From contig JAJNNQ010000044.1 in the NCBI GenBank assembly GCA_027886175.1, positions 434,001 through 498,000 of the forward strand: a stretch of DNA of 64,000 bases. The letters run 5' to 3'. The notes under the pieces are model-generated. The model saw only the letters and a list, made by a program, of their open reading frames with translations. It made no database searches and was not told where the DNA came from. Positions 3,216 through 62,680 of this stretch are shown piece by piece; position 1 is the first letter of the stretch; each line of letters begins with the position of its first letter. Both the position numbers and the translations under genes were made by a program. This DNA comes from Phylloscopus collybita. Taxonomy: Eukaryota > Chordata > Aves > Passeriformes > Phylloscopidae.

Positions 3216-3353
3216 CTAATTCTCCTTATGGCTGGTCACGGAGAAATATATTGAATATGATCGCCCCATTCTTCTCTTTTCTTTCTGCTCTTTGACTGCA
3301 CCGATGAGTGGCGCCAGGCTGGATGCGGGCATGGCCTCTGTTACAAATGGATG
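3216..3353 (-). CDS. PAK-like copy 1, terminal exon
   Basis: Begins HPFV after a gtgcag acceptor and contains [18 protein letters not shown], the usual PAK C-terminal helix. It then runs about 16 residues further than PAK1-3 before TAG at 3216-3218. Overlapping AATAAA signals follow at 3138-3129. Confidence 0.92.
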   Translation of the reverse strand, partial: HPFVTEAMPASSLAPLIGAVKEQKEKRRMGRSYSIYFSVTSHKEN

Positions 3354-6300
3354 CTGCACAAAGGAAAACAAAAACCAACAATGAACCATCATTTTCCGAG
3401 CTAAGAGCCTCAAAGGCAGGGCAATATTTTTTTAAATGAAAGAGGGATTGAGTCAGAGTAGGTCAAAGGAGAAACAGTGGGGCAATAGTGGCACAGGTTG
3501 CTGCAAGAGCTGCCAAGTGCCCCAGGCCTGGAAATATTTCAGGTCTGAGCATCGTGATCTCTTTCAAGATGTCCCTGCTCATGGCAGGGCACTTGGAGCA
3601 GATGACCTTGACAGGTCCCTGCCAGCCCAGCCCAGTCCAGGATTGCTGAGTGTTTTTGTTTGAACAGCACCTGGAGTGGAGGTGAGGAGGAGGGGGGCTC
3701 ATCTGATGCCTTGCACTTGAGTGGAGGAGGAGCTCATCGCTGGGACACTGTTCCAGCTGCAGCCCCTGGGCATTTTACCTGCAGCAGCTCCTGGGCAGAC
3801 CAGCGCTGCGCCTCGTCTGTCTGCAGGCAGCAGCTCAGGAAGTGACGCAGCAAAGGTGAGAGGAGCTCGGGCTGCCGCAGCTCTGGGGTCCCTCTTGTGG
3901 CGATCAGGCGTTGAGCCTGGAGAAAAAGGAAACACCAGTCTCTCCCCTGCTCCTTTTGCTGTGTCTGTAACTGCTCTCCCAGATCCCATTGTTCAAGCTC
4001 CACTCTGCAGTGGCAGTTTGTTTCTGCCGTGGCACAGAGGCAGAGATGCCTTTCCTGGACCAACAAACACCCCAAAGCCCAATGCAGCCAGAGCTTTTCC
4101 AAGATCCAACAGATCTGGCCTTGGCAGCTGATTTCATTGACTGACCTTGTTAGTGGAAACGACATCAGCAAAGGCACCTTTGGCTCTCTGAGCATTCCCT
4201 TGACCAGCTTGACAGGCTATTTGGAGGAGGGACTTTGCTATGCTAACTCACTCTACTATTTCCAAGGATTATGACATGAAATGCATCTCTGCAGTGCTTG
4301 TTGGTCCCTTGAGCACAGCTGCCATCAAACAAAAGTCATCAAGCTTTTTGCTTGGCTCTTGAAAACAATGATAATTGAAAGGAAGGAAAGGAAATCCCTC
4401 AGTTATTCCTCAGGTAAGGAAACAAACATTTGGAATCTCATCTTCAACACAGACACGTGAAGATGCATGCACCAATGGATTGGCATGAAAAAGCCTGTTT
4501 GGCCACACAGGAAACAGCTGCAGCTCTGTCTCTCAGCAGACTGCAAATTTCAGCTTCCCTTGTGTGGCCAAAGGAAAATTTGGGCGGTGAAATGAGAAGA
4601 AAGAGAAATGCCATCTCTATGGTAGCCCTCTGCTCATTTGGATACTCAGGTCAAGGCATTCACGGTGTGCCCATCCTAGAAAGTGCCCAGAAACAAAGGG
4701 GTGGTTTTGGCAGGCTCTGCACATCACCAGGCTTCAGCTTGGTGACGTGGAGAAAGTGGCTTGGCTTAGGAAAGAAATATGGTCCCTGAGTGTTTCAGCA
4801 GCAGTGCACAAGAAGCACAAGAGCCTCTGTGGCCTTCACACCCTCATGTCCATGTTCCAGGCAAGTTTCCCTCAGAGAAGAATGGGGGTGCGCTTCTTCT
4901 CTTCAAACAACTGTTTTAGAAACTTGTTTGGGTTTGGCTTTCTTTCCTTCATTTCAGGAAAGATGATACCAGTTCTAAGATAGTTGTTTCCTGTTAGTAG
5001 GGCCATCTCCACAGCCTAAAGAGCTGGAACGACTTCTAAGCCAAAGCAAAATGTTGCCTGAGCATGGAGATGGTTTGTGTGGAGTGAGGCTGGAGCTCCC
5101 CCAGTGATGCAACCAAAAGTACAGCAGATGCTGATGTGCTGCAGGGACCTTTTTAGAAAGGGACCGTGGTGGAAGTAGTTCCAGCAGTTGACAAAGGGAT
5201 TTTGTCCAACGGCAGACAGAAGGTGGGCAAGGTGAGAAAGACAACGGGATCAGAGGGTATTGACACCTTACCGAGCGAGAACTTTCACTCCAGTAAGGGA
5301 CTTCTCCTTCAGCCATTTCAATGCCCACAATGCCAAAAGACCATATGTCCACTTTGGGGCCATATGGTTGACGTTTCACCATTTCAGGCGCCATCCACCA
5401 AGCAGCCCCGATCACCGAGCTGCGTCTACTCTGCTCGTGGCTGAGTTGAGCAGAGAGGCCAAAATCAGCTGGGGAGAAAGCAAAGGACAGTTTTTATTTG
5501 AATACTGTGCAAGGAGGAAAGCAAGCAAAAGAATTGCCCAGGAGAAGTTGGAGAATGTGCTGTTGAATCTCCTGGAAGGCTGTCCCTGGTCTGTTTTCTC
5601 AGGACTTTAGCCAAGGCAATATGGCATTGGCTACTTCAAAAACCCCACATTTTTTACACTGCCTCCAGCAGTGGCTTTTGTTCCCCTGAAGCTTTGCACT
5701 TGTAGCTCCCTCCCTTGGGAAGGGACACACACAGAGCACAGCCAGTCTGGACTGCTTGTTCCTTGTGCTAGGTCTGTGCACGCTGCAACGGTGTGGTCAG
5801 CTCACAGCAGAGCCCCTGCACTGCCAGCAGCACCATTTTTGGGGGGCTGGCAGTCGCTCCAAAGCAGCCCCACACCCCACATGTCCCTGGAACGCTGCAC
5901 CTGACCAGGAGTATACTGACCCAGCTTGACAGAGCCATCGGTTCTGAGCAGGATGTTGAGGCTCTTCACATCTCGGTGCATCACATGGTTGGAGTGCAGA
6001 AAATGCAGTCCCTGCAGGCACTGAGAGAGAAAACAGAAAGCAGAGGGCAAAAATCACTGGTATGATTTCATCACACCAGAAAGGAAACAGCTCTCAAATA
6101 TTCCCTCTCCAGGGGAATGGGGAGTATTGGCAGGACACAGTGCCATGGAGAGCAGGAGCTTGCTGCTCCTACACTAGCAGAGCAGCACCTTTCTAAAGAA
6201 AGGCAGGTCAGCTTTTCAAAGAGCACCAGCAACTGCTCTTGTAGACTTTCCTGTGCAAACCAGCCAGAATGACTGCTGCTGCAGTGGATGTGCTCAGAAA

Positions 6301-9300
6301 TAAAGAGCACTTTGGCTGCACTGCTAACCTTTCCAGCTGAGCACTGAGAGAAGTGAGTCTCTCTTTTGTCTTTGCTGTGTGTTTCAAATGCTGCCACCAC
6401 ACCTTTGCTTTCACAGGCAAGGAATGCAGTGCAGACAGGCAAAGGCTTAGGGAGGCAAGATGGAGAACAGCAAACACAGAGACGGAGTGAGACCGCAACA
6501 GCAGCAGATAAGAGGCCAAGAGCAGAGTGCAGTGAGTGCAGGGGCACTGGCAGGCAGTTCACTTGAGATGCTCCTGCTTGCCCAGAGCATAGCAGCAACA
6601 CAGAAACAGAGCCTGGCACATGGAATTGCTCCTGTTCTGAGCCCTTTTCCCAGACAAGCCTGCCCAAGCGCTCGGAAGCACAGGTGGGATCCCTCACCTC
6701 CCGGCTGACACTTGCAATCTCGGGTTCACACAGGTCAGCCTCCTTGATGACATCAAACAGAGTGCCTCCATCCATGTACTCCATAACCAGCCAGAGTTCT
6801 TCATGCACAAGGTAGCTGAAAGAAGGAAACAAGGCCATGCAGATGAACAGGCGTGACTACGTTGGTTTTGTGCTTGATTCTTGTTTGTGGCAAGGACAGA
6901 ATTAAAGGAGTAGACATTCCCTCTAGGCTGTGCCTTGTTTGCAGTCTCAAGAAGAATGGCACAGCTGTGAAAAAGGAGGTGTCTTAGATGGCCAGCAAGA
7001 GAGAAGTGCAGTTGAGTGACAGGCCAGATGAAAAACGTGTCAGGCGTGGTCTTTCTGGAAATAAGCACCTGGTGTTCCTGGCATGGACAGCCATGGAAAA
7101 GAGGGACATCGAGCCAAGGGAAATCCTGTCTAGGATGGTTGATCAGCATTGAAGAAACCTAAAGAAATCAATCCTGAGACAACATGGAGGCAGTGAACTT
7201 ACAGGGTATTGACTTAGTATGGTAGGGTTGATCCAGGTTTTTGAGCCATTTTCCAAGCATGTGTTTGAAAGCCAGGCAAGACTCATGCAGACAAAATGCA
7301 CTCTCTTGCCATCCATTGGAGATGAGTAGAGAAATAAGAATTAACCAATAATTACCGGCTCTCTTTTCTGCCAGTGTCCCAAATGGGTTTTGAACCTTGC
7401 ACGCTTTTACTTTGTAAACAAACACATGTAATGTGTATCCCATGTATGTAATCATGGGATAAGACCATGACCATGACTCACCTGTCTAAATAATTCACAA
7501 TAAAGGGGCTCCTATTCCTCCTCATGACTGTGATTTCAGTAATGGTGTCTTGCTTGCTAAACAGTCCTTGAAGCTTTATTTTCTTGATGGCCACCTGAAA
7601 TGACATTGAAAATCAGTCACTTTAGCAGTTGGTGGCACGAGACCACAGCACACACGGAGCGAGTGATTTTGCAATGACACAGCCGAGCCAAAGTGCCAAA
7701 GTGCCTTGTGTTTTGACAAAGAAGTAATAAGGAACTGAGATCCCAACAGCCCATTTCTCTGCTCCTCTGGGGGCCAGTTACAGGACACGTGGCCACTGTT
7801 AACAATGGTTAACAGGGCCAGTTACAGGACAATGTTGTCCACTTGTTAACAAGGGTGTCTCAACTATCACCCACAAAGCTCTGAGCACACTCTCTGTTTC
7901 TCTGTCTGTACATCAGAAGAAGGAATCTGTGCCTTGGGGCTCTGTGGATACATCCTGGGCTCTAAGCAGGGCTTAGGGCTTGGAGGGATGCCTTGCAGAC
8001 CTCTCCCCACGTGCAGTTCCCAAGTGCAGCACTGCAGGTGGCTAAGGAACTGCCAGGAACATTCAGATGTATTTGCTGGCAGGCAGAAATGAGAATTCAG
8101 GACTCTGAAGCCATAGGCCCAGAGAGCAGTGAGATGCTCTAAGGCACCGCCTTTGGTGGAGCAATTGAGAGCCAGGGAGAGCGTCCTTCTCTGCAAGGAA
8201 CCGCTGCCCTCCTTGCCTTCCTTCTGGCAGCTGAGAAGGACAAAGAGTGTCCCAAAGGCACTTGGCAGGCTGGCCCCAGTCTGTGCTTCTTGTGCCTCTG
8301 CAGCACAGCTCTAGCCAAAGCTCCAGCCACAGCTGACACAAGAGAGGAAAGCCCTGGAGAGCAGCAGAATCTGCAGGGGCTGTTGACATTTACCTCTGCT
8401 CCTGTGGCAGTGTCGATGGCTCTACAAACATCTCCAAAACCCCTAGAAACAGAACAGCAGCAAAGAAAGGAGAAGCCAATTAGATGTTGGAGGGAAAGCA
8501 TCCCAGAGAGGAGATCTCTGCTGTAAATGCCTCAAAGGTGCAGCATGCAGGAAGGGTCTGCCAGAAGGCAGATGATGCATTTTCCTCTCAAGTGCATGGG
8601 CATTGGGCCTGTTCCTGAAGCACTGGGCTTTACTGCCTCAGCTCAAAAGGCCATTCATCTTGGATGAATGGATTCTTTCATCTTGGATTTCAGTTTCTAA
8701 ACTGGGCAGTCAGTTTTCAGCCTGACCTCAGACTATTTCCTTCAGCAAAGTCTTGGGAAGAAATGTTCCTGAGAACTGTTATCTCACTGCTGTGCAGCTT
8801 GCTGTTTCTGGCAGTGAAATGGAAGTGTCTTGGACAATGCCTTCTGGCCACACTGCCAAATTCTGGCCGGTACTGAGAGATGGGGCAGCCGAACGCCAGT
8901 GTCTGAGGATGTTTGCAGCTTGCCTGGCTTCACACTTGAGAGATATTCCAGCAGCAAATCACCTGCCTCATGGCTATGTAGAAGGAACGGTGCTTGGACT
9001 CACCCGCTGCCAAGGTGTTCCAGTTCAATGTATTTCCTCCGGGGATTTTCCCAGGTCACCATTTTCCCTGAGGGAAACAAAATGCAAGATCGATTGCACT
9101 TGAAAGCACAGACCCCACCAGCCAAGAGATACAAAAGGCTGCCCCACTGTCTGGGGCTCTGACTTCTTTGTGGTCAGCTGCATGACAAAAAGCTGGCAAA
9201 GCCCAAGCAGGAGCAGTGACAAGCAATGGGAAGAAGGCACAGCCAGAGCGAGCCCCTTCCAAGCTGGTGCCCATTCAGGACACAACAGGATTGGCTTTGG

Positions 9301-12300
9301 GATCAGACACACCCAGGTGCAGATCAACGCCCTTTTTGTGCCAACACCTGCTGGTAGACAGAGAGTCAGCTGGGCTCTGTTCTCAGCCCCACCAGGTCTG
9401 ATCTGAGAGCACAGGGCTGGCAGCTGTTGTGGGCAAGGAGCAGATTCAGTGACTTGTGCTGCAGAATCACCCAGGGCTTGATGTGTTTTCCTAGAGACTG
9501 ATCTGAGCAGGGCTTGGGCCAATGGGTAGGATTGTATCAGCCATGGGAATGAGTGGGAATCAGGGATGAAAAAGTGCCATGGATCTCAGGAATATCCAGC
9601 AGCAGGGCTGGAGGCTGGCTCCTGAGAAACGCCTCCAGTGCAGTTTGATCTGATCAGGCCACAGCAATGTGTCTCTTGGACACATCTGTATAAGAACAAA
9701 ACTGGGATATTAAATACAGATTGTTGACAAAGTATCTTATTTCATTGGGGCCACAATAAAGACACCTCTTGCTCTCTGTTTCTGCTGACACCTGCTGTTC
9801 TTTCAAAGAAGTTCTCACTGACAAAAATATAATATTCTCATTTAATAAACTGTAGATGCAGTGGTGGTAATAAGAAGAGTCATAAAATGACACCAGTAAG
9901 ACACATGGGGCAGAAGAGCTCCTTCAGGATGGAGAAAAGTCTACCCCAAAAATTCCACAAAGAAACCTCAAACTAAAAACAAAACCACAACGAAAAGACA
10001 AAGTGCCCAAACCAGGAGTCTAAGGAGAATTTAGGAAGCTAACCATTCCCTCCAGTTTGGCCACGAGCGCACAGGACTTGCCTGCATCATTTGCTAGGTC
10101 ACAGCCTTGTGCTGATGCAAGAACAATCCCTGCTTCTGCCCGGAGCAGATAGGGAAGCTCAGGCAAAGCCAAGCATGTCCAAGCTGCCTTCAGAGGCAGC
10201 AGGAACAGCCAGAGCACTCTCTTGCTGCCTTGGAGCACAGCATTTCCTGTGGGGACTCCTCAATGTCCCTGTGAGACCAGACTGAGGAGGATCATTGGGT
10301 GCAGCTCTGCTGACACGAGCACACAATGCACTGTCCCTCAGAGAAGAAAGACACCAGACGTACTCAGGAGCTCCAGGCAGTCATCCTCCATCTGCTGTTG
10401 CTGAGCAGCAGCTCTGTCAGGGCTGGAGATGAACAAACTGCCCAGGCTCCACTTCCCACTTTGGGCAGCAAAGGCTCCTTTAGGTGACACTGCTGCAGCA
10501 GCTGCAGCAGCAGGTTCATTAGAAGAGCCTGTGTAGAACTGAGACAACAAAGGAGTTGGCGTCAGAAAAGTGGCTGGCAGAGATGAGCCCGAGATGCCAT
10601 TGCAAATGCAAGCCCTTAGGAAGATGCTGTCAGCCACATGCAGGACTCTGCCAGGGGTTTTTCCTGATGTCCACTTCCCAAACTGGATGGGTCAAACCCA
10701 AAGGCTGGTTTTACTCCAGCTCATGGCCAGATTCATTTTCCACTTTCTCCAAAATGCATTTTCATGGATTTTCTGAAGGGTGGCTGCCAAAATGACCATT
10801 CCATGACTCTTTCTCCCAAGGACTCTCTTTCCCCTCCAAGGGCTGCAGACACACTTGCAGGTGCTTGTTCAAATGTTCTACCTTTTCCCTTGGAGCCCTC
10901 TTTTCCTGCAGCATCTTCAGAACGGGCTCAACTGGCAGCACTTCTGCTTGGGACACTTGCTGTGCCGCACAGGAATCTTGGGGCTCCTCGTTGCCAGTCC
11001 CTTGCTGGAAATCTTTGCAGGCTGCCAGGCCAGATGTCCACACGCCCACCTCAAGTCAAAGAGAACAAAGCAGTCAGAGAGTACAGCTTGTCCCTGTCAG
11101 CCAAGAGTCACAGAGTGAGAGGAAAGGGAGAGCTCCAGATTCACAATGGACACAGATAGCTTGTTTCAAGATTCATCTGGGTCACCATGTTCACCTGCAA
11201 GAACATCTCAAGAAACAAGGAGAGCAGGAAGAGGCCAGCAGGAATGCATTGAGATGACTGCTGGCCAAAAGGCCAAAGGACTAGGCAGCTGAGCACAGCA
11301 CAGCAGCTGAGATTCAGCAGAGCAGGAAGTGTCCTTTGGAGTGGCTGGGATAGACACTGGAGCAGGATGGCACTCAGAGGCATCACCCCAGCCCCCTGCT
11401 GCTCTGCAGGGCAAAGGCAAGCAGGGCAGAAAGCACCAGTTTGGTGACTGCAGTGGCTCTGGTTCTTTCACTCACTTGTTTTTCTAGAGCCTCTGGCTTC
11501 TCAAGGAGGTGAAGAATTTTCTCTTGTCTTTCTCTTTGAATTTTCATTTCTTCCTCCAGCCTCTCATACATTGCCTTGATCCTAGCCTCAGTTTTCTGCA
11601 GCTCTTCCTGCAGCTTCTCACCAAGGTTCTTCTCCGTTGCCTTGATCCCAGCCTGAATTTTGTGCAGCTCTGCCTGCAGCTTCTCACCCAAGTTCTGAAA
11701 AGAAAGAGAGGGAGAAACTTGGATGAGTGGAGTGGCTGCCACTCTTCCACTCACCTGGTTTTGTTGATCGGGCCTCTGCTGGTGGAGATCCCGGTGATCT
11801 TGAGGAGTTCTAAAGTCTTCTGTGCTCCTCTTCTTCCCTGCCATGATGTTCTGTAGACACAAATGCAGAGCAAGTGACTGGGAGCTGCCATCAGGCTCAG
11901 CTTTTCCTCTTTCAGCCTCCAAATCACATCCATTCAGCCACTTCTTTCTGCTTCCCCTCCCACCTCTGCTTCCACTGGAACTGTGCCTGCAGAGGCAAAA
12001 GAACAACCTGGCAACAGAGGCACCAAAATCCCTGACTTCAAGCAGCAACTCCACGTCCCCAGGGTGTCTCTCAAATGCCCCCAGGTAAGCACACCCAAGA
12101 AGCTCCGGGGGACAAACCACCCCAAAGAGCTGCTGTTGTCAGATCAGTATCTTTGGTGCCTGTAGCTGCTTGGCCAGTCTGTGCAGGGGGACTGGTGTCT
12201 CCGGAGCACAGTGTCCCCTACGGACTGGCCAGGCTGAGCGCAGGGTCTGTGACATGCTCCCTCCTCTGCAGACAGGGAGCCTTCCTGCTTCAGGCTGGCC

Positions 12301-13570
12301 CCTCTCAGCATCCCAGCCAGCTGGGGCCTGAACATGACAGGTCAAAGCCCATGGTCCAGGTGTCACTGGCTGAGGGGAATCACTAGGTCCTGGCAGGACT
12401 GCAGCACTCAGCATCCTCAGCCACCAACAGCAAGTGCCGACTGCTCAGAAACTTGCAGCTCTGCCTTGCACTACAGACAGCCCCCTCCAGAAGTGGCACT
12501 TACTGTCCTGGAAAGGTCTGGCTGCGGTGTGACCACAGCTGGAGGATTGTGGTCATTTGGCTCCTCTATGGCCTCTTCTGCAGGAGCAGAGGGAGCCAGA
12601 GGAGAGTCTGCTCTTGGTTCTGTGCTCTGTGGACAGACAGGAGCGTGAGGCACAGGCCATCACCTATCATTTATAACCTTATTTCTATTCAGCTCTACAA
12701 CCATCTCTACTAAGGCACAAATCATCAACTTTGACAGCAATGGGATTCTAAGTCACTCAGAGTCAATTCAAATGGGCTGATTCAAGTGTACTGCTGATTG
12801 CTCTGAAGTAGATATTCCCCCTGGCTACTATGAGGAGGCAATGTTGTCTCTGCAAAGCTGGGCTTTTAGTTCTTTTCAAGCTCTGAAATGGAACATTAGG
12901 AAATAGCCAGTGATGCCTTTGCTCTTGCCAGTGCAGACATGGAAATGGATTTTCTTTCAGCCTGCTCAGCTGGCCCTCTACACTCCACTGCCACAGGCCG
13001 AGCTCACAGCTTGCTTCAGAACTCTTAAACAGCAGGAACATCAAATGTTCCTTTCTCACTCACCTCAGGATCGGCACCTCTGAACACACGGGTCAGGTGA
13101 CCTGCAGTGGGCAAGGGAAAAGGAACCAGATTCCTTGAGAAAACTGCAGAGAAGCCTAGCAGAGCTTAGAAGAGCTCCCAAGAAGGTCTCCCAGTCTACA
13201 TTTTCCAAGTTGTGCTGCTTGACCCAGCAAAGGGATGAAATGACAGACTCTGCTGCCACAGACTCTCCCATGGAGGGAACACAACTCCTGCAGGTTCCCT
13301 TGCAAATGCTGCCCGCAGAGCCCTGGCTACGGACACCCCCTTTTTAGCTGACCGTGTTGACACGTGTTGGAGCTTTACCCAAGTGCCATCCAAATGGTCT
13401 TTCTGTTTCCAAATCAACTCAGTCACTAAGAAAGAGGAGGAAGACATACAAAAGCCAGGCTTGGTTCCACCCAGGGAAAAGCTCTACTTACGTGTCAGGT
13501 GAGTCAGGAAATAGCCAGAATAAGCAACACCATAAACAGAGCAAACTGCAGCAGCGAGTGGCCCAATCAT
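3216..13570 (-). CDS. PAK3-like serine/threonine kinase, copy 1 (15 coding exons)
   Basis: Predicted p21-activated-kinase-like protein of 604 residues. Exons in transcript order: 13570-13492, 13101-13064, 12626-12504, 11850-11755, 11694-11476, 11049-10882, 10538-10364, 9067-9004, 8442-8394, 7594-7482, 6815-6698, 6020-5921, 5468-5272, 3916-3779, 3353-3216. All introns are GT-AG on the minus strand, phases match at each junction, and the frame stays open to TAG at 3216-3218. The kinase domain (about 312-567) has the glycine loop (319-326), K341, E357, HRD 429-431, K433, N436, DFG 449-451 and APE 474-476, so activity is plausible. The first six exons carry a hydrophobic start, an acidic/proline PAK linker remnant and a coiled coil. 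No CRIB p21-binding motif is visible. The first exon and the sixth (11049-10882) are the least certain. Introns hold nothing recognised except a 43-bp tandem duplication. Confidence 0.85.
3779..3916 (-). CDS. PAK-like copy 1, exon 14: C-lobe
   Basis: Encodes [16 protein letters not shown] and on to RWSAQELLQ, matching the PAK C-lobe and keeping the subdomain XI arginine. Phase 0 at both ends; 46 codons. Confidence 0.93.
5272..5468 (-). CDS. PAK-like copy 1, exon 13: DFG, activation loop, APE
   Basis: Encodes ADFGLSAQ, the activation loop [15 protein letters not shown], and the conserved VDIWSFGI. S465 occupies the place of the PAK activation-loop threonine and could be phosphorylated. The P+1-loop threonine (GT in most Ser/Thr kinases) is Ala469 here. 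Acceptor ctccccag, donor gtaagg. Confidence 0.94.
5921..6020 (-). CDS. PAK-like copy 1, exon 12: catalytic loop
   Basis: Encodes [20 protein letters not shown] and on to GSVKL. HRD (429-431), catalytic-loop K433 and metal-binding N436 are all present. Position 435 is Leu where PAKs have Asp. Acceptor ctctcag, donor gtcagt. Confidence 0.94.
6698..6815 (-). CDS. PAK-like copy 1, exon 11: hinge
   Basis: Encodes [19 protein letters not shown] and on to IASVSRE. The Met gatekeeper (M386) and the MEY hinge are as in PAKs. Acceptor ctttcag, donor gtgagg. Confidence 0.93.
7482..7594 (-). CDS. PAK-like copy 1, exon 10: VAIK lysine and alpha-C helix
   Basis: Begins VAIKK, with K341 in the ATP-anchoring position, and contains the alpha-C glutamate E357 within [10 protein letters not shown]. 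It ends NYLDS across the splice, as in PAK1-3. Acceptor tttcag, donor gtgagt. Confidence 0.93.
7771..7853. repeat. 43-bp tandem duplication in a kinase intron
   Basis: Two imperfect direct copies starting gggccagttacaggaca at 7771 and 7814, each followed by a TTAACAA element. They lie in the intron between exons 9 and 10 and recur in units 2 and 3. Confidence 0.8.
8394..8442 (-). CDS. PAK-like copy 1, exon 9: glycine loop
   Basis: A 49-bp exon (tttctag acceptor, gtaaat donor) completing the glycine loop and encoding [11 protein letters not shown]. This matches the PAK beta-2/beta-3 turn and ends in phase 0 directly before VAIKK. Confidence 0.88.
9004..9067 (-). CDS. PAK-like copy 1, exon 8: start of the kinase domain
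   Basis: Encodes the lead-in [16 protein letters not shown], which corresponds to the beta-1 strand and first glycines of a PAK kinase domain. The gtgagt donor interrupts the second glycine codon of the loop, and the next exon completes GSGGFGDV, the ATP-binding GxGxxGxV motif. Confidence 0.85.
10364..10538 (-). CDS. PAK-like copy 1, exon 7: Ala/Gln-rich linker
   Basis: Fifty-eight codons plus one base, flanked by a tgtctcag acceptor and a gtacgt donor. It includes a run of seven alanines and a run of four glutamines, then an acidic EDDCLELL end. The extra base joins the next exon to form Arg. No family homology was recognised, but phase and splice sites fit. Confidence 0.7.
10882..11049 (-). 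CDS. PAK-like copy 1, exon 6 (tentative linker exon)
   Basis: A 168-bp open segment between a gacttgag acceptor and a gtagaa donor, phase 0 at both ends, which fits both neighbouring exons. It encodes a Gln/Glu-rich linker ending in [13 protein letters not shown]. The donor is weak and the acceptor lacks C before AG. Units 2 and 3 keep the same boundaries. Downstream of this donor, unit 1 has a 5-bp insertion relative to units 2 and 3. Confidence 0.5.
11476..11694 (-). CDS. PAK-like copy 1, exon 5: coiled coil with internal duplication
   Basis: Seventy-three codons between a ttctttcag acceptor and a gtgagt donor, phase 0 at both ends. The sequence is Glu/Lys/Gln/Leu-rich with heptad-like spacing of Leu, Ile and Met and no proline in the first 60 residues, as expected of a coiled coil. 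Two consecutive 22-residue blocks both begin NLGEKLQ and share the pattern EL.K..A.IKA, so the exon grew by a 66-bp tandem duplication. Known PAK linkers have no comparable segment, so it may be a dimerisation module gained by this family. Confidence 0.75.
11755..11850 (-). CDS. PAK-like copy 1, exon 4 (possible alternative start)
   Basis: Thirty-two codons in phase 0 at both ends. Codon 3 is an ATG (11842-11844) with A at -3 and G at +4, a strong vertebrate context. If transcription began downstream of exon 1, this would give a 522-residue protein. The encoded sequence is polar ([14 protein letters not shown], then Gln-rich) with no recognised domain. Confidence 0.7.
12504..12626 (-). CDS. 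PAK-like copy 1, exon 3: acidic/proline PAK linker
   Basis: Forty-one codons flanked by an acag acceptor and a gtaagt donor. The order Pro-Leu-Ala-Pro, acidic run (EEAIEEPND), then [11 protein letters not shown] matches the acidic stretch and the following proline-rich segment found between the CRIB and kinase domains of group I PAKs. This exon ties the N-terminal exons to the PAK family independently of the kinase domain. Confidence 0.75.
13064..13101 (-). CDS. PAK-like copy 1, exon 2 (38 bp)
   Basis: A short exon between a ctgcag acceptor and a gtgagt donor, encoding a basic stretch [12 protein letters not shown]. It ends in phase 0 in front of the PAK-linker exon. Of its three frames, only the one reached from exon 1 avoids a stop, which supports the exon 1 splice. 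Confidence 0.6.
13492..13570 (-). CDS. PAK-like copy 1, exon 1: hydrophobic N-terminus
   Basis: ATG at 13568-13570 has A at -3. It is followed by 26 codons plus one base and a gtaagt donor. Residues 2-24 are rich in Ala, Val, Gly, Tyr, Leu and Phe with no charged residue, so they could form a signal anchor or membrane segment; a conventional PAK has no such segment. The phase (one base left over) joins the next exon in frame to give Arg. The exon could extend upstream or be non-coding, since an ATG in exon 4 also has a strong context. Confidence 0.55.
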
Positions 13571-15654: not shown

Positions 15655-15659
15655 GGGCT

Positions 15660-16380: not shown

Positions 16381-16385
16381 GGGCT

Positions 16386-25769: not shown

Positions 25770-28700
25770 CTAATTCTCCTTATGGCTGGTCACGGAGAAA
25801 TATATTGAATATGATCGCCCCATTCTTCTCTTTTCTTTCTGCTCTTTGACTGCACCGATGAGTGGCGCCAGGCTGGATGCGGGCATGGCCTCTGTTACAA
25901 ATGGATGCTGCACAAAGGAAAACAAAAACCAACAATGAACCATCATTTTCCGAGCTAAGAGCCTCAAAGGCAGGGCAATATTTTTTTAAATGAAAGAAGG
26001 ATTGAGTCAGAGTAGGTCAAAGGAGAAACAGTGGGGCAATAGTGGCACAGGTTGCTGCAAGAGCTGCCAAGTGCCCCAGGCCTGGAAATATTTCAGGTCT
26101 GAGCATCGTGATCTCTTTCAAGATGTCCCTGCTCATGGCAGGGCACTTGGAGCAGATGACCTTGACAGGTCCCTGCCAGCCCAGCCCAGTCCAGGATTGC
26201 TGAGTGTTTTTGTTTGAACAGCACCTGGAGTGGAGGTGAGGAGGAGGGGGGCTCATCTGATGCCTTGCACTTGAGTGGAGGAGGAGCTCATCGCTGGGAC
26301 ACTGTTCCAGCTGCAGCCCCTGGGCATTTTACCTGCAGCAGCTCCTGGGCAGACCAGCGCTGCGCCTCGTCTGTCTGCAGGCAGCAGCTCAGGAAGTGAC
26401 GCAGCAAAGGTGAGAGGAGCTCGGGCTGCCGCAGCTCTGGGGTCCCTCTTGTGGCGATCAGGCGTTGAGCCTGGAGAAAAAGGAAACACCAGTCTCTCCC
26501 CTGCTCCTTTTGCTGTGTCTGTAACTGCTCTCCCAGATCCCATTGTTCAAGCTCCACTCTGCAGTGGCAGTTTGTTTCTGCCGTGGCACAGAGGCAGAGA
26601 TGCCTTTCCTGGACCAACAAACACCCCAAAGCCCAATGCAGCCAGAGCTTTTCCAAGATCCAACAGATCTGGCCTTGGCAGCTGATTTCATTGACTGACC
26701 TTGTTAGTGGAAACGACATCAGCAAAGGCACCTTTGGCTCTCTGAGCATTCCCTTGACCAGCTTGACAGGCTATTTGGAGGAGGGACTTTGCTATGCTAA
26801 CTCACTCTACTATTTCCAAGGATTATGACATGAAATGCATCTCTGCAGTGCTTGTTGGTCCCTTGAGCACAGCTGCCATCAAACAAAAGTCATCAAGCTT
26901 TTTGCTTGGCTCTTGAAAACAATGATAATTGAAAGGAAGGAAAGGAAATCCCTCAGTTATTCCTCAGGTAAGGAAACAAACATTTGGAATCTCATCTTCA
27001 ACACAGACACGTGAAGATGCATGCACCAATGGATTGGCATGAAAAAGCCTGTTTGGCCACACAGGAAACAGCTGCAGCTCTGTCTCTCAGCAGACTGCAA
27101 ATTTCAGCTTCCCTTGTGTGGCCAAAGGAAAATTTGGGCGGTGAAATGAGAAGAAAGAGAAATGCCATCTCTATGGTAGCCCTCTGCTCATTTGGATACT
27201 CAGGTCAAGGCATTCACGGTGTGCCCATCCTAGAAAGTGCCCAGAAACAAAGGGGTGGTTTTGGCAGGCTCTGCACATCACCAGGCTTCAGCTTGGTGAC
27301 GTGGAGAAAGTGGCTTGGCTTAGGAAAGAAATATGGTCCCTGAGTGTTTCAGCAGCAGTGCACAAGAAGCACAAGAGCCTCTGTGGCCTTCACACCCTCA
27401 TGTCCATGTTCCAGGCAAGTTTCCCTCAGAGAAGAATGGGGGTGCGCTTCTTCTCTTCAAACAACTGTTTTAGAAACTTGTTTGGGTTTGGCTTTCTTTC
27501 CTTCATTTCAGGAAAGATGATACCAGTTCTAAGATAGTTGTTTCCTGTTAGTAGGGCCATCTCCACAGCCTAAAGAGCTGGAACGACTTCTAAGCCAAAG
27601 CAAAATGTTGCCTGAGCATGGAGATGGTTTGTGTGGAGTGAGGCTGGAGCTCCCCCAGTGATGCAACCAAAAGTACAGCAGATGCTGATGTGCTGCAGGG
27701 ACCTTTTTAGAAAGGGACCGTGGTGGAAGTAGTTCCAGCAGTTGACAAAGGGATTTTGTCCAACGGCAGACAGAAGGTGGGCAAGGTGAGAAAGACAACG
27801 GGATCAGAGGGTATTGACACCTTACCGAGCGAGAACTTTCACTCCAGTAAGGGACTTCTCCTTCAGCCATTTCAATGCCCACAATGCCAAAAGACCATAT
27901 GTCCACTTTGGGGCCATATGGTTGACGTTTCACCATTTCAGGCGCCATCCACCAAGCAGCCCCGATCACCGAGCTGCGTCTACTCTGCTCGTGGCTGAGT
28001 TGAGCAGAGAGGCCAAAATCAGCTGGGGAGAAAGCAAAGGACAGTTTTTATTTGAATACTGTGCAAGGAGGAAAGCAAGCAAAAGAATTGCCCAGGAGAA
28101 GTTGGAGAATGTGCTGTTGAATCTCCTGGAAGGCTGTCCCTGGTCTGTTTTCTCAGGACTTTAGCCAAGGCAATATGGCATTGGCTACTTCAAAAACCCC
28201 ACATTTTTTACACTGCCTCCAGCAGTGGCTTTTGTTCCCCTGAAGCTTTGCACTTGTAGCTCCCTCCCTTGGGAAGGGACACACACAGAGCACAGCCAGT
28301 CTGGACTGCTTGTTCCTTGTGCTAGGTCTGTGCACGCTGCAACGGTGTGGTCAGCTCACAGCAGAGCCCCTGCACTGCCAGCAGCACCATTTTTGGGGGG
28401 CTGGCAGTCGCTCCAAAGCAGCCCCACACCCCACATGTCCCTGGAACGCTGCACCTGACCAGGAGTATACTGACCCAGCTTGACAGAGCCATCGGTTCTG
28501 AGCAGGATGTTGAGGCTCTTCACATCTCGGTGCATCACATGGTTGGAGTGCAGAAAATGCAGTCCCTGCAGGCACTGAGAGAGAAAACAGAAAGCAGAGG
28601 GCAAAAATCACTGGTATGATTTCATCACACCAGAAAGGAAACAGCTCTCAAAGATTCCCTCTCCAGGGGAATGGGGAGTATTGGCAGGACACAGTGCCAT

Positions 28701-31700
28701 GGAGAGCAGGAGCTTGCTGCTCCTACACTAGCAGAGCAGCACCTTTCTAAAGAAAGGCAGGTCAGCTTTTCAAAGAGCACCAGCAACTGCTCTTGTAGAC
28801 TTTCCTGTGCAAACCAGCCAGAATGACTGCTGCTGCAGTGGATGTGCTCAGAAATAAAGAGCACTTTGGCTGCACTGCTAACCTTTCCAGCTGAGCACTG
28901 AGAGAAGTGAGTCTCTCTTTTGTCTTTGCTGTGTGTTTCAAATGCTGCCACCACACCTTTGCTTTCACAGGCAAGGAATGCAGTGCAGACAGGCAAAGGC
29001 TTAGGGAGGCAAGATGGAGAACAGCAAACACAGAGACGGAGTGAGACCGCAACAGCAGCAGATAAGAGGCCAAGAGCAGAGTGCAGTGAGTGCAGGGGCA
29101 CTGGCAGGCAGTTCACTTGAGATGCTCCTGCTTGCCCAGAGCATAGCAGCAACACAGAAACAGAGCCTGGCACATGGAATTGCTCCTGTTCTGAGCCCTT
29201 TTCCCAGACAAGCCTGCCCAAGCGCTCGGAAGCACAGGTGGGATCCCTCACCTCCCGGCTGACACTTGCAATCTCGGGTTCACACAGGTCAGCCTCCTTG
29301 ATGACATCAAACAGAGTGCCTCCATCCATGTACTCCATAACCAGCCAGAGTTCTTCATGCACAAGGTAGCTGAAAGAAGGAAACAAGGCCATGCAGATGA
29401 ACAGGCGTGACTACGTTGGTTTTGTGCTTGATTCTTGTTTGTGGCAAGGACAGAATTAAAGGAGTAGACATTCCCTCTAGGCTGTGCCTTGTTTGCAGTC
29501 TCAAGAAGAATGGCACAGCTGTGAAAAAGGAGGTGTCTTAGATGGCCAGCAAGGGAGAAGTGCAGTTGAGTGACAGGCCAGATGAAAAACGTGTCAGGCG
29601 TGGTCTTTCTGGAAATAAGCACTTGGTGTTCCTGGCATGGACAGCCATGGAAAAGAGGGACATCGAGCCAAGGGAAATCCTGTCTAGGATGGTTGATCAG
29701 CATTGAAGAAACCTAAAGAAATCAATCCTGAGACAACATGGAGGCAGTGAACTTACAGGGTATTGACTTAGTATGGTAGGGTTGATCCAGGTTTTTGAGC
29801 CATTTTCCAAGCATGTGTTTGAAAGCCAGGCAAGACTCATGCAGACAAAATGCACTCTCTTGCCATCCATTGGAGATGAGTAGAGAAATAAGAATTAACC
29901 AATAATTACCGGCTCTCTTTTCTGCCAGTGTCCCAAATGGGTTTTGAACCTTGCACGCTTTTACTTTGTAAACAAACACATGTAATGTGTATCCCATGTA
30001 TGTAATCATGGGATAAGACCATGACCATGACTCACCTGTCTAAATAATTCACAATAAAGGGGCTCCTATTCCTCCTCATGACTGTGATTTCAGTAATGGT
30101 GTCTTGCTTGCTAAACAGTCCTTGAAGCTTTATTTTCTTGATGGCCACCTGAAATGACATTGAAAATCAGTCACTTTAGCAGTTGGTGGCACGAGACCAC
30201 AGCACACACGGAGCGAGTGATTTTGCAATGACACAGCCGAGCCAAAGTGCCAAAGTGCCTTGTGTTTTGACAAAGAAGTAATAAGGAACTGAGATCCCAA
30301 CAGCCCATTTCTCTGCTCCTCTGGGGGCCAGTTACAGGACACGTGGCCACTGTTAACAATGGTTAACAGGGCCAGTTACAGGACAATGTTGTCCACTTGT
30401 TAACAAGGGTGTCTCAACTATCACCCACAAAGCTCTGAGCACACTCTCTGTTTCTCTGTCTGTACATCAGAAGAAGGAATCTGTGCCTTGGGGCTCTGTG
30501 GATACATCCTGGGCTCTAAGCAGGGCTTAGGGCTTGGAGGGATGCCTTGCAGACCTCTCCCCACGTGCAGTTCCCAAGTGCAGCACTGCAGGTGGCTAAG
30601 GAACTGCCAGGAACATTCAGATGTATTTGCTGGCAGGCAGAAATGAGAATTCAGGACTCTGAAGCCATAGGCCCAGAGAGCAGTGAGATGCTCTAAGGCA
30701 CCGCCTTTGGTGGAGCAATTGAGAGCCAGGGAGAGCGTCCTTCTCTGCAAGGAACCGCTGCCCTCCTTGCCTTCCTTCTGGCAGCTGAGAAGGACAAAGA
30801 CTGTCCCAAAGGCACTTGGCAGGCTGGCCCCAGTCTGTGCTTCTTGTGCCTCTGCAGCACAGCTCTAGCCAAAGCTCCAGCCACAGCTGACACAAGAGAG
30901 GAAAGCCCTGGAGAGCAGCAGAATCTGCAGGGGCTGTTGACATTTACCTCTGCTCCTGTGGCAGTGTCGATGGCTCTACAAACATCTCCAAAACCCCTAG
31001 AAACAGAACAGCAGCAAAGAAAGGAGAAGCCAATTAGATGTTGGAGGGAAAGCATCCCAGAGAGGAGATCTCTGCTGTAAATGCCTCAAAGGTGCAGCAT
31101 GCAGGAAGGGTCTGCCAGAAGGCAGATGATGCATTTTCCTCTCAAGTGCATAGGCATTGGGCCTGTTCCTGAAGCACTGGGCTTTACTGCCTCAGCTCAA
31201 AAGGCCATTCATCTTGGATGAATGGATTCTTTCATCTTGGATTTCAGTTTCTAAACTGGGCAGTCAGTTTTCAGCCTGACCTCAGACTATTTCCTTCAGC
31301 AAAGTCTTGGGAAGAAATGTTCCTGAGAACTGTTATCTCACTGCTGTGATAGGGGGTAGCTTGCTGTTTCTGGCAGTGAAATGGAAGTGTCTTGGACAAT
31401 GCCTTCTGGCCACACTGCCAAATTCTGGCCGGTACTGAGAGATGGGGCAGCCGAACGCCAGTGTCTGAGGATGTTTGCAGCTTGCCTGGCTTCACACTTG
31501 AGAGATATTCCAGCAGCAAATCACCTGCCTCATGGCTATGTAGAAGGAACGGTGCTTGGACTCACCCGCTGCCAAGGTGTTCCAGTTCAATGTATTTCCT
31601 CCGGGGATTTTCCCAGGTCACCATTTTCCCTGAGGGAAACAAAATGCAAGATCGATTGCACTTGAAAGCACAGACCCCACCAGCCAAGAGATACAAAAGG

Positions 31701-34700
31701 CTGCCCCACTGTCTGGGGCTCTGACTTCTTTGTGGTCAGCTGCATGACAAAAAGCTGGCAAAGCCCAAGCAGGAGCAGTGACAAGCAATGGGAAGAAGGC
31801 ACAGCCAGAGCGAGCCCCTTCCAAGCTGGTGCCCATTCAGGACACAACAGGATCGGCTTTGGGATCAGACACACCCAGGTGCAGATCAACGCCCTTTTTG
31901 TGCCAACACCTGCTGGTAGACAGAGAGTCAGCTGGGCTCTGTTCTCAGCCCCACCAGGTCTGATCTGAGAGCACAGGGCTGGCAGCTGTTGTGGGCAAGG
32001 AGCAGATTCAGTGACTTGTGCTGCAGAATCACCCAGGGCTTGATGTGTTTTCCTAGAGACTGATCTGAGCAGGGCTTGGGCCAATGGGTAGGATTGTATC
32101 AGCCATGGGAATGAGTGGGAATCAGGGATGAAAGAGTGCCATGGATCTCAGGAATATCCAGCAGCAGGGCTGGAGGCTGGCTCCTGAGAAACGCCTCCAG
32201 TGCAGTTTGATCTGATCAGGCCACAGCAATGTGTCTCTTGGACACATCTGTATAAGAACAAAACTGGGATATTAAATACAGATTGTTGACAAAGTATCTT
32301 ATTTCATTGGGGCCACAATAAAGACACCTCTTGCTCTCTGTTTCTGCTGACACCTGCTGTTCTTTCAAAGAAGTTCTCACTGACAAAAATATAATATTCT
32401 CATTTAATAAACTGTAGATGCAGTGGTGGTAATAAGAAGAGTCATAAAATGACACCAGTAAGACACATGGGGCAGAAGAGCTCCTTCAGGATGGAGAAAA
32501 GTCTACCCCAAAAATTCCACAAAGAAACCTCAAACTAAAAACAAAACCACAACGAAAAGACAAAGTGCCCAAACCAGGAGTCTAAGGAGAATTTAGGAAG
32601 CTAACCATTCCCTCCAGTTTGGCCACGAACGCACAGGACTTGCCTGCATCATTTGCTAGGTCACAGCCTTGTGCTGATGCAAGAACAATCCCTGCTTCTG
32701 CCCGGAGCAGATAGGGAAGCTCAGGCAAAGCCAAGCATGTCCAAGCTGCCTTCAGAGGCAGCAGGAACAGCCAGAGCACTCTCTTGCTGCCTTGGAGCAC
32801 AGCATTTCCTGTGGGGACTCCTCAATGTCCCTGTGAGACCAGACTGAGGAGGATCATTGGGTGCAGCTCTGCTGACACGAGCACACAATGCACTGTCCCT
32901 CAGAGAAGAAAGACACCAGACGTACTCAGGAGCTCCAGGCAGTCATCCTCCATCTGCTGTTGCTGAGCAGCAGCTCTGTCAGGGCTGGAGATGAACAAAC
33001 TGCCCAGGCTCCACTTCCCACTTTGGGCAGCAAAGGCTCCTTTAGGTGACACTGCTGCAGCAGCTGCAGCAGCAGGTTCATTAGAAGAGCCTGTGTAGAA
33101 CTGAGACAACAAAGGAGTTGGCGTCAGAAAAGTGGCTGGCAGAGATGAGCCCGAGATGCCATTGCAAATGCAAGCCCTTAGGAAGATGCTGTCAGCCACA
33201 TGCAGGACTCTGCCAGGGGTTTTTCCTGATGTCCACTTCCCAAACTGGATGGGTCAAACCCAAAGGCTGGTTTTACTCCAGCTCATGGCCAGATTCATTT
33301 TCCACTTTCTCCAAAATGCATTTTCATGGATTTTCTGAAGGGTGGCTGCCAAAATGACCATTCCACTTTCTCCCAAGGACTCTCTTTCCCCTCCAAGGGC
33401 TGCAGACACACTTGCAGGTGCTTGTTCAAATGTTCTACCTTTTCCCTCGGAGCCCTCTTTTCCTGCAGCATCTTCAGAATGGGCTCAACTGGCAGCACTT
33501 CTGCTTGGGACACTTGCTGTGCCGCACAGGAATCTTGGGGCTCCTCGTTGCCAGTCCCTTGCTGGAAATCTTTGCAGGCTGCCAGGCCAGATGTCCGCAC
33601 GCCCACCTCAAGTCAAAGAGAACAAAGCAGTCAGAGAGTACAGCTTGTCCCTGTCAGCCAAGAGTCACAGAGTGAGAGGAAAGGGAGAGCTCCAGATTCA
33701 CAATGGACACAGACAGCTTGTTTCAAGATTCATCTGGGTCACCATGTTCACCTGCAAGAACATCTCAAGAAACAAGGAGAGCAGGAAGAGGCCAGCAGGA
33801 ATGCATTGAGATGACTGCTGGCCAAAAGGCCAAAGGACTAGGCAGCTGAGCACAGCACAGCAGCTGAGATTCAGCAGAGCAGGAAGTGTCCTTTGGAGTG
33901 GCTGGGATAGACACTGGAGCAGGATGGCACTCAGAGGCATCACCCCAGCCCCCTGCTGCTCTGCAGGGCAAAGGCAAGCAGGGCAGAAAGCACCAGTTTG
34001 GTGACTGCAGTGGCTCTGGTTCTTTCACTCACTTGTTTTTCTAGAGCCTCTGGCTTCTCAAGGAGGTGAAGAATTTTCTCTTGTCTTTCTCTTTGAATTT
34101 TCATTTCTTCCTCCAGCCTCTCATACATTGCCTTGATCCTAGCCTCAGTTTTCTGCAGCTCTTCCTGCAGCTTCTCACCAAGGTTCTTCTCCGTTGCCTT
34201 GATCCCAGCCTGAATTTTGTGCAGCTCTGCCTGCAGCTTCTCACCCAAGTTCTGAAAAGAAAGAGAGGGAGAAACTTGGATGAGTGGAGTGGCTGCCACT
34301 CTTCCACTCACCTGGTTTTGTTGATCGGGCCTCTGCTGGTGGAGATCCCGGTGATCTTGAGGAGTTCTAAAGTCTTCTGTGCTCCTCTTCTTCCCTGCCA
34401 TGATATTCTGTAGACACAAATGCAGAGCAAGTGACTGGGAGCTGCCATCAGGCTCAGCTTTTCCTCTTTCAGCCTCCAAATCACATCCATTCAGCCACTT
34501 CTTTCTGCTTCCCCTCCCACCTCTGCTTCCACTGGAACTGTGCCTGCAGAGGCAAAAGAACAACCTGGCAACAGAGGCACCAAAATCCCTGACTTCAAGC
34601 AGCAACTCCACGTCCCCAGGGTGTCTCTCAAATGCCCCCAGGTAAGCACACCCAAGAAGCTCCGGGGGACAAACCACCCCAAAGAGCTGCTGTTGTCAGA

Positions 34701-36128
34701 TCAGTATCTTTGGTGCCTGTAGCTGCTTGGCCAGTCTGTGCAGGGGGACTGGTGTCTCCGGAGCACAGTGTCCCCTACGGATCTGGCCAGGCTGAGCGCA
34801 GGGTCTGTGACACGCTCCCTCCTCTGCAGACAGGGAGCCTTCCTGCTTCAGGCTGGCCCCTCTCAGCATCCCAGCCAGCTGGGGCCTGAACATGGCAGGT
34901 CAAAGCCCATGGTCCAGGTGTCACTGGCTGAGGGGAATCACTAGGTCCTGGCAGGACTGCAGCACTCAGCATCCTCAGCCACCAACAGCAAGTGCCGACT
35001 GCTCAGAAACTTGCAGCTCTGCCTTGCACTACAGACAGCCCCCTCCAGAAGTGGCACTTACTGTCCTGGAAAGGTCTGGCTGCGGTGTGACCACAGCTGG
35101 AGGATTGTGGTCATTTGGCTCCTCTATGGCCTCTTCTGCAGGAGCAGAGGGAGCCAGAGGAGAGTCTGCTCTTGGTTCTGTGCTCTGTGGACAGACAGGA
35201 GCGTGAGGCACAGGCCATCACCTATCAGTTATAACCTTATTTCTATTCAGCTCTACAACCATCTCTACTAAGGCACAAATCATCAACTTTGACAGCAATG
35301 GGATTCTAAGTCACTCAGAGTCAATTCAAATGGGCTGATTCAAGTGTACTGCTGATTGCTCTGAAGTAGATATTCCCCCTGGCTACTATGAGGAGGCAAT
35401 GTTGTCTCTGCAAAGCTGGGCTTTTAGTTCTTTTCAAGCTCTGAAATGGAACATTAGGAAATAGCCAGTGATGCCTTTGCTCTTGCCAGTGCAGACATGG
35501 AAATGGATTTTCTTTCAGCCTGCTCAGCTGGCCCTCTACGCTCCACTGCCACAGGCCGAGCTCAGAGCTTGCTTCAGAACTCTTAAACAGCAGGAACAAC
35601 AAATGTTCCTTTCTCACTCACCTCAGGATCGGCACCTCTGAACACACGGGTCAGGTGACCTGCAGTGGGCAAGGGAAAAGGAACCAGATTCCTTGAGAAA
35701 ACTGCAGAGAAGCCTAGCAGAGCTTAGAAGAGCTCCCAAGAAGATCTCCCAGTCTACATTTTCCAAGTTGTGCTGCTTGACCCAGCAAAGGGATGAAATG
35801 ACAGACTCTGCTGCCACAGACTCTCCCATGGAGGGAACACAACCCCTGCAGGTTCCCTTGCAAATGCTGCCCGCAGAGCCCTGGCTACGGACACCCCCTT
35901 TTTAGCTGACCGTGTTGACACGTGTTGGAGCTTTACCCAAGTGCCATCCAAATGGTCTTTCTGTTTCCAAATCAACTCAGTCACTAAGAAAGAGGAGGAA
36001 GACATACAAAAGCCAGGCTTGGTTCCACCCAGGGAAAAGCTCTACTTACGTGTCAGGTGAGTCAGGAAATAGCCAGAATAAGCAACACCATAAACAGAGC
36101 AAACTGCAGCAGCGAGTGGCCCAATCAT
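25770..36128 (-). CDS. PAK3-like serine/threonine kinase, copy 2 (15 coding exons)
   Basis: Same architecture and predicted length (604 residues) as copy 1. Exons in transcript order: 36128-36050, 35659-35622, 35184-35062, 34407-34312, 34251-34033, 33606-33439, 33100-32926, 31629-31566, 30996-30948, 30148-30036, 29369-29252, 28574-28475, 28022-27826, 26470-26333, 25907-25770. Every exon is open and splice sites are unchanged. Relative to copy 1, I see two replacements in exon 6 (Trp to Arg in its first four codons, Val to Ile in EPILKML) and one silent change in exon 4. The kinase exons appear identical. An 8-bp length difference lies in the intron near 31348. Confidence 0.85.
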
Positions 36129-61300: not shown

Positions 61301-62680
61301 CTGGTGTCTCCGGAGAACAGTGTCCCCTACGGATCTGGCCAGGCTGAGCGCAGGGTCTGTGACACGCTCCCTCCTCTGCAGACAGGGAGCCTTCCTGCTT
61401 CAGGCTGGCCCCTCTCAGCATCCCAGCCAGCTGGGGCCTGAACATGACAGGTCAAAGCCCATGGTCCAGGTGTCACTGGCTGAGGGGAATCACTAGGTCT
61501 TGGCAGGACTGCAGCACTCAGCATCCTCAGCCACCAACAGCAAGTGCCGACTGCTCAGAAACTTGCAGCTCTGCCTTGCACTACAGACAGCCCCCTCCAG
61601 AAGTGGCACTTACTGTCCTGGAAAGGTCTGGCTCTGGTGTGACCACAGCTGGAGGATTGTGGTCATTTGGCTCCTCTATGGCCTCTTCTGCAGGAGCAGA
61701 GGGAGCCAGAGGAGAGTCTGCTCTTGGTTCTGTGCTCTGTGGACAGACAGGAGCGTGAGGCACAGGCCATCACCTATCATTTATAACCTTATTTCTATTC
61801 AGCTCTACAACCATCTCTACTAAGGCACAAATCATCAACTTTGACAGCAATGGGATTCTAAGTCACTCAGAGTCAATTCAAATGGGCTGATTCAAGTGTA
61901 CTGCTGATTGCTCTGAAGTAGATATTCCCCCTGGCTACTATGAGGAGGCAATGTTGTCTCTGCAAAGCTGGGCTTTTAGTTCTTTTCAAGCTCTGAAATG
62001 GAACATTAGGAAATAGCCAGTGATGCCTTTGCTCTTGCCAGTGCAGACATGGAAATGGATTTTCTTTCAGCCTGCTCAGCTGGCCCTCTACACTCCACTG
62101 CCACAGGCCGAGCTCACAGCTTGCTTCAGAACTCTTAAACAGCAGGAACATCAAATGTTCCTTTCTCACTCACCTCAGGATCGGCACCTCTGAACACACG
62201 GGTCAGGTGACCTGCAGTGGGCAAGGGAAAAGGAACCAGATTCCTTGAGAAAACTGCAGAGAAGCCTAGCAGAGCTTAGAAGAGCTCCCAAGAAGGTCTC
62301 CCAGTCTACATTTTCCAAGTTGTGCTGCTTGACCCAGCAAAGGGATGAAATGACAGACTCTGCTGCCACAGACTCTCCCATGGAGGGAACACAACCCCTG
62401 CAGGTTCCCTTGCAAATGCTGCCCGCAGAGCCCTGGCTACGGACACCCCCTTTTTAGCTGACCGTGTTGACACGTGTTGGAGCTTTACCCAAGTGCCATC
62501 CAAATGGTCTTTCTGTTTCCAAATCAACTCAGTCACTAAGAAAGAGGAGGAAGACATACAAAAGCCAGGCTTGGTTCCACCCAGGGAAAAGCTCTACTTA
62601 CGTGTCAGGTGAGTCAGGAAATAGCCAGAATAAGCAACACCATAAACAGAGCAAACTGCAGCAGCGAGTGGCCCAATCAT
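52322..62680 (-). CDS. PAK3-like serine/threonine kinase, copy 3 (15 coding exons)
   Basis: Complete third copy. Exons in transcript order: 62680-62602, 62211-62174, 61736-61614, 60959-60864, 60803-60585, 60158-59991, 59652-59478, 58181-58118, 57548-57500, 56700-56588, 55921-55804, 55126-55027, 54574-54378, 53022-52885, 52459-52322. All exons are open, giving 604 residues. Exon 3 has two adjacent base changes relative to the other copies, one silent and one replacing Gln with Glu in the TPQPD segment. Exon 6 matches copy 1. The provirus lies about 2.2 kb beyond the 3' end and does not interrupt the gene. Confidence 0.85.

What the first reader, a model, noticed from the sequence alone, without database searches (positions are those of the whole stretch)
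9004..13570. PAK-like kinase without a visible CRIB domain and with a new N-terminus
Six phase-compatible exons upstream of the kinase half encode a hydrophobic start, a remnant of the PAK acidic/proline linker and a coiled coil. I saw no p21-binding motif in any frame. If right, the enzyme has lost Cdc42/Rac control and autoinhibition and gained membrane association and self-association, which would be a new regulatory design for a PAK.
Basis: inference. Interest (0 to 1): 0.8.

Follow-up and report, generated by a model that had tools for sequence, protein, structure and literature searches.

The report
CRIB-less PAK3 kinase with CEP250 coil
A songbird gene, present here in three near-identical tandem copies, joins the catalytic half of the signalling kinase PAK3 to a piece of a centrosome protein in place of its usual on/off switch, a design shared by other perching birds whose function is still a guess.

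Summary
All three tandem copies encode the same intact 604-residue, 15-exon minus-strand model. The kinase half is a group I PAK (167 of 290 residues identical to PAK3). No CRIB/autoinhibitory domain was found in any frame of the window or in any of 29 aligned relatives. That loss is already in print for zebra finch PAK3-like genes (PMC13060935, citing Kong 2010).

The new N-terminus is real and shared: relatives carrying it occur across passerines, manakins included. What looks new is its origin. Exon 3 is a PAK3 linker exon; exons 5 and 6 (and, through relatives, exon 4) derive from the rod of centrosomal CEP250 (tblastn E=7e-14), and the match runs 60 bases past the exon-6 donor into the intron. 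No paper joining CEP250 and bird PAK3 was found.

The membrane-anchor idea is weak (peak hydropathy 1.35); self-association is plausible, untested. Best reading: a Cdc42/Rac-independent PAK tethered through a CEP250 coiled coil. Centrosome targeting and a testis role are inference. The three copies are too alike to show selection.

The parts
13492..13570 (-). E1: start codon and conserved hydrophobic N-terminus (MIGPLAAAVCSVYGVAYSGYFLTHLT)
   Evidence: E1-like start in 47 of 79 database proteins
13064..13101 (-). E2: HLTRVFRGADPE
12504..12626 (-). E3: PAK3-type acidic/proline linker exon
   Evidence: window E3 vs recalled PAK3 linker scores 73, 0 of 1000 shuffles reach it
11755..11850 (-). E4: first CEP250-derived exon, shortened here
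   Evidence: Not significant against CEP250 on its own (2.8 bits); assigned through relatives, which match this exon and whose first copy matches CEP250 strongly, for example Aphelocoma 91 bits
11695..11754 (-). 60-nt in-frame spacer between E4 and E5: tiny intron or coding
   Evidence: read through in 27 of 55 coil-bearing relatives (three false matches removed)
11476..11694 (-). E5: CEP250-derived exon, coiled coil with a 66-bp internal tandem duplication
   Evidence: tblastn with Strix CEP250-like E=5e-7
10882..11049 (-). E6: CEP250-derived exon
   Evidence: tblastn with Strix CEP250-like E=7e-14, 52% identity over 77 codons, the last 20 of them past the donor; profile E=1.4e-12
10822..10881 (-). 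CEP250 homology continuing past the E6 donor into the intron (remnant)
   Evidence: seen in all three copies
10364..10538 (-). E7: second linker exon, ending in MEDDCLELL
   Evidence: PAK3 linker match significant in Corapipo (0 of 1000), not for the window's linker part alone (528 of 1000)
9004..9067 (-). E8: start of kinase domain
8394..8442 (-). E9, kinase
7482..7594 (-). E10, kinase (VAIK Lys)
6698..6815 (-). E11, kinase
5921..6020 (-). E12, kinase (HRD)
5272..5468 (-). E13, kinase (DFG, activation loop, APE)
3779..3916 (-). E14, kinase
3216..3353 (-). E15, kinase end, C-terminus and stop
25770..36128 (-). second tandem copy of the gene, intact model
52322..62680 (-). third tandem copy of the gene, intact model

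Best explanation
The gene is a passerine PAK3-like kinase whose p21-binding and autoinhibitory exons were replaced. Shown by sequence: (i) a short conserved hydrophobic segment (E1-E2) of unknown origin starts the protein; (ii) E3 is a PAK3 linker exon and E7, judged from relatives, the next one; (iii) between them sit exons from the rod of CEP250 (C-Nap1); (iv) a PAK kinase domain follows with its catalytic residues in place. Inferred: without the autoinhibitory segment the kinase is neither held off by nor released by Cdc42/Rac. The CEP250 coiled coil self-associates or joins CEP250, raising local concentration so that molecules activate one another on the activation-loop Ser (Thr423 in PAK1), and acts at the centrosome linker, most likely in male germ cells.
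For: Intact model in 3 of 3 copies. No CRIB. CEP250: Corapipo PAK3-like vs Strix CEP250-like 59 of 102 identical, vs Callipepla 56 of 106; CEP250 protein vs window DNA E=7e-14, five shuffles of that CEP250 region no better than 0.46; a profile from CEP250-type proteins with no kinase listed scores the window model 55.6 bits and hits 57 of 79 proteins, two of which are the CEP250-type proteins P0064 and P0065 themselves. Specificity: the Corapipo region finds no PDB chain up to E=10, and the only non-passerine proteins reached by the N-terminal searches are those two. Catalytic Lys, helix C Glu, HRD, Asn, DFG and APE present in the window. The 16 coil-bearing rows, suboscines included, form one clade (100/99) in a 26-row kinase tree of selected sequences. 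CEP250 loss makes male mice infertile (PMC8809461, abstract); centrosomal PAK is published (PMC4490568, title and abstract start in listing).
Against: No transcript or protein evidence for this locus. The CEP250 segment is mid-rod (986-1221 of 1800 in Mycteria), whereas either terminal domain sufficed for centrosomal localisation in PMC9595518 (passages). The P+1 Thr is Ala in the window (Thr in 60, Ala in 1 of 68 relatives), which may weaken or redirect activity. Heptads over all of E5 are not above shuffles (401 of 2000). E1-E7 show no constraint between copies (6 of 898 sites vary, introns 32 of 8535, p=0.17); 0 of 917 in E8-E15 is only suggestive (p=0.07). Two coil-bearing manakin kinases (P0078, P0079) fall outside the main clade, and 18 of 79 relatives have the E1 start and kinase but no CEP250 match, so the coil is not essential to the whole family.
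Confidence: 0.6

Rival explanations
1. Ordinary member of the known songbird PAK3L amplification: a truncated PAK3 catalytic half with fast-changing, functionally loose N-terminal exons; the CEP250 exons are a neutral passenger.
For: PAK3L lacking N-terminal regulatory exons, testis expression of some copies and 200 copies on zebra finch Z are published (PMC13060935, passages). N-terminal exons vary no less than introns between copies. 18 of 79 relatives have E1 and kinase but no CEP250 match.
Against: CEP250-derived exons stay in frame with the kinase in oscines and suboscines, and the E1 motif is strongly conserved, hard to explain without constraint; database gene models are however chosen to be open.
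Confidence: 0.3
2. Expressed but catalytically weak kinase or pseudokinase acting as scaffold or dominant-negative partner of PAK or CEP250. This can be true together with the domain origin given above.
For: P+1 Thr replaced by Ala and the Thr423 position by Ser in the window; among 68 relatives 4 lost the HRD Asp and 3 have Glu for the VAIK Lys.
Against: All other catalytic residues tested are intact in the window, and the kinase exons are identical in the 3 copies.
Confidence: 0.25
3. The upstream exons belong to another gene or are not spliced to the kinase.
For: No transcript for this locus; unusual E6 acceptor.
Against: Database models from several passerines join the same exons to the kinase.
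Confidence: 0.05

Closest known systems
Songbird PAK3-like (PAK3L) family (Kong et al. 2010, not held; described in PMC13060935)
   Same: PAK3-derived kinase without N-terminal regulatory exons, amplified in arrays; database relatives are mostly named PAK 3-like or left as hypothetical proteins
   Different: No text that I could read describes the E1-E2 start or the CEP250-derived exons
Group I PAKs (PAK1-3)
   Same: Kinase domain 160-167 of 290 identical; linker exon E3, and E7 judged from relatives
   Different: CRIB and autoinhibitory segment absent; 5' exons replaced; CEP250 insert between linker exons; Thr423 position Ser, P+1 Thr to Ala
CEP250 / C-Nap1 (rootletin family)
   Same: Rod segment in E5-E6 and, through relatives, E4
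   Different: None of the rest of CEP250, including its terminal centrosome-targeting domains; kinase attached
Manakin kinases P0078 and P0079 (PAK 3-like / STE20-like)
   Same: CEP250 rod joined to a PAK-type kinase
   Different: Longer CEP250 part in P0079 (48% identity over 71% of the CEP250 query); no E1-like start found; outside the main coil-bearing clade

Membership tests
Group I PAK kinase | PAK-type kinase domain | tested here: met
   PDB best hits PAK1, PAK3 and PAK2, E about 1e-102 to 1e-97; beside PAK1-3 in the tree
Group I PAK kinase | CRIB/p21-binding domain | tested here: not met
   no match either among 29 relatives scanned
Group I PAK kinase | Autoinhibitory segment overlapping the CRIB | tested here: not met
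   query and profile covered most of it
Group I PAK kinase | Activation-loop Thr (PAK1 Thr423) | tested here: not met
   Ser in the window; Ser in 59 and Thr in 6 of 68 relatives; Ser can still be phosphorylated
Passerine PAK3L family | PAK-derived kinase lacking N-terminal regulatory exons, tandem copies | tested here: met
Passerine PAK3L family | Location on Z, testis expression | not testable with these tools
   whole genome search not answered; no transcripts held
CEP250 rod | Sequence homology to the CEP250 rod beyond generic coiled coil | tested here: met
   (E5 and E6 directly; E4 only through relatives)
CEP250 rod | Centrosome localisation | not testable with these tools
   needs cells
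Membrane-anchored kinase | Transmembrane-grade hydrophobic segment | tested here: inconclusive
   maximum 19-residue hydropathy 1.35; helix 2-34 in the Hirundo relative, first three blocks at pLDDT 52-53

The most novel reading that the evidence does not exclude
Passerines carry a family of chimeric kinases made from PAK3 and the centrosome-linker protein CEP250. It arose before oscines and suboscines split, was amplified in tandem arrays, and works as a Cdc42/Rac-independent PAK placed on the centrosome linker of male germ cells, where copy number could affect sperm traits.
Probability: 0.3. Interest if true: 0.78.

Novelty: new variant of a known kind. Interest (0 to 1): 0.6.

Why it matters
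A preprint counts 200 PAK3L copies on zebra finch Z, in arrays that appear to colocalise with inversions tied to siring success, and says their function remains to be elucidated (PMC13060935, passages). If such copies carry a piece of CEP250, a protein needed for male fertility in mice (PMC8809461, abstract), there is a concrete hypothesis to test: a centrosome-linker kinase. It would also be a clear case of exon shuffling replacing a kinase's regulatory half. Whether the zebra finch Z copies carry the CEP250 part was not shown here: the estrildid Lonchura relatives found (P0052, P0068-P0070, P0072) have no CEP250 match, while Vidua P0018 has one.

Tried and rejected
Membrane anchoring: hydropathy too low to claim. 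CRIB hidden in another frame: nothing. Generic coiled coil rather than CEP250: rejected. A lost CEP250 exon between E3 and E4, of the kind seen in 31 of 55 coil-bearing relatives by a loose regex: no remnant found, best match E=0.03 at 22% identity. Selection from the three copies: too few differences. Origin of E1-E2: only COX8 at E=0.32 for the Corapipo segment, unresolved. One origin of the CEP250 segment: the 117-column tree does not settle it (PAK3L rows need 2 changes). Other ORFs of the unit: 10 tried, no Pfam match at 0.01; no Rfam match in the window.

Full report
Gene model. Three tandem units, 97-99% identical in their long aligned blocks, each carry the same minus-strand gene. The 15-exon model gives 604 residues in 3 of 3 copies, with compatible phases. 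Junctions were set by hand in copy 1 and are GT and AG in the other two as well. Coding sequence differs at only 6 sites, all in E3, E4 and E6.

Kinase. Pfam Pkinase 3.3e-70. The best solved relatives are PAK1, PAK3 and PAK2; the window has 166, 160 and 167 of 290 residues identical to PAK1, PAK2 and PAK3 (letters partly recalled). VAIK, helix C Glu, HRD, catalytic Asn, DFG and APE are present; the PAK1 Thr423 position is Ser and the P+1 Thr is Ala.

No CRIB. tblastn with a CRIB/AID query gives only + strand matches, the best at E=0.02. A small CRIB/AID profile scores at best 10.7 bits over 2284 six-frame pieces, against 41.3 bits for a recalled PAK4 control; among 128 fetched proteins the best is 8.9 bits. 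None of 29 aligned relatives matches PF00786, and no row or 31 lists it. The intervals upstream of copies 1 and 2 (13570-25770 and 36128-52322) lie wholly in the window and gave no CRIB. Canonical PAK3 elsewhere in this genome could not be checked.

Relatives. Residues 1-320 find 59 proteins among 7993 scored candidates; all that bear an organism name are passerines by my knowledge of the names (P0034 has none). The Corapipo query finds 41 among 7311, itself included: passerine proteins plus two non-passerine ones without kinase, a Strix CEP250-like protein and a Callipepla protein with a Rootletin domain. Corapipo (Pipridae) and Empidonax (Tyrannidae) are Passeriformes; that both families are suboscine is recalled. 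An E1-like start was seen in 47 of 79.

CEP250 origin. Corapipo residues 187-288 are 59 of 102 identical to Strix CEP250-like residues 621-722, and residues 81-170 match 577-672, so one stretch is present twice; an exon duplication is the simplest reading. In the window, CEP250 matches E5 (E=5e-7) and E6 (E=7e-14); the E6 match runs past the donor to 10822. E4 alone does not match CEP250 significantly (2.8 bits). A profile from CEP250-type proteins with no kinase listed gives 55.6 bits on the window model, and hits 57 of 79 proteins (55 of 77 without P0064 and P0065). Searching with the Callipepla segment gave 52 proteins, of which 29 bear a CEP250 name, the rest mostly hypothetical or uncharacterised, one trichohyalin-like and one the manakin kinase P0079. 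In turkey, PAK3 and CEP250 are listed on different chromosomes (9 and 22; PMC8470100, passages), so the fused pieces were not neighbours there.

Linker exons. E3 resembles the PAK3 acidic/proline linker (0 of 1000 shuffles for window, Cyanistes and Corapipo). E7 is significant in Corapipo (0 of 1000), not for the window's linker part (528 of 1000) nor Pipra P0079 (127 of 1000). The join into the kinase aligns with PAK from residue 292.

Structure. AlphaFold2 of the Hirundo relative P0004 (29 rows): PAK kinase (Foldseek best PAK1 4daw, 56% identity), helix 197-282, helix 2-34 of low confidence, mean pLDDT 62.5, the five models 40.7-62.5.

History. In a 26-row kinase tree (22 database kinases that I chose, window, PAK1-3), the 16 rows of one clade (100/99) all bear the coil and include five suboscine rows; the window lies with Hirundo, Sylvia and Poecile (99/97). 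P0078/P0079 (coil) and rows without the coil lie outside, so a loss or a second gain is needed. The host is probably a passerine near those groups (inference).

Literature. Loss of N-terminal regulatory exons, expression and Z location of PAK3L: PMC13060935, passages. Canary authors failed to find the expansion (PMC4373106, passages). CEP250 and male fertility: PMC8809461, abstract. C-Nap1 domains: PMC9595518, passages. Centrosomal PAK: PMC4490568, listing only. Only searched CEP250 with PAK3: six papers, five judged from the listing and the turkey paper by its passages (gene lists only). Searches searched PAK3/PAK in songbirds and showed no description of this N-terminus in what I read. Kong 2010 is not held, so it may describe more than I know.

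Noticed in passing
window 45757-50032, + strand: Endogenous provirus between copies 2 and 3: 371-bp terminal repeats 99.5% alike, pieces matching retroviral M, gag p24, zinc knuckle and a TLV-type coat protein.
   Followed up: partly
window 13604-13804, 36162-36483, 62714-62953: A 13-bp minisatellite starts 34 bases upstream of the start codon in each copy; copy number differs (15.5, 24.5, 18.5).
   Followed up: no
window 11571-11696 and the same place in the other copies: A 66-bp (22-codon) tandem duplication in E5; 22 residues would shift a heptad register by one.
   Followed up: partly
P0005, P0007, P0008, P0013, P0023, P0028 (Hirundo): Annotated barn swallow proteins of this family are joined to integrase, RNase H or gag domains; likely annotation read-through into retroviral insertions.
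   Followed up: no
P0083 (Taeniopygia CEP250): The CEP250 segment occurs three times within this one predicted protein.
   Followed up: no
P0050, P0052-P0059, P0066-P0070, P0072-P0075: 18 passerine proteins keep the E1 start and kinase but have no CEP250 match.
   Followed up: partly
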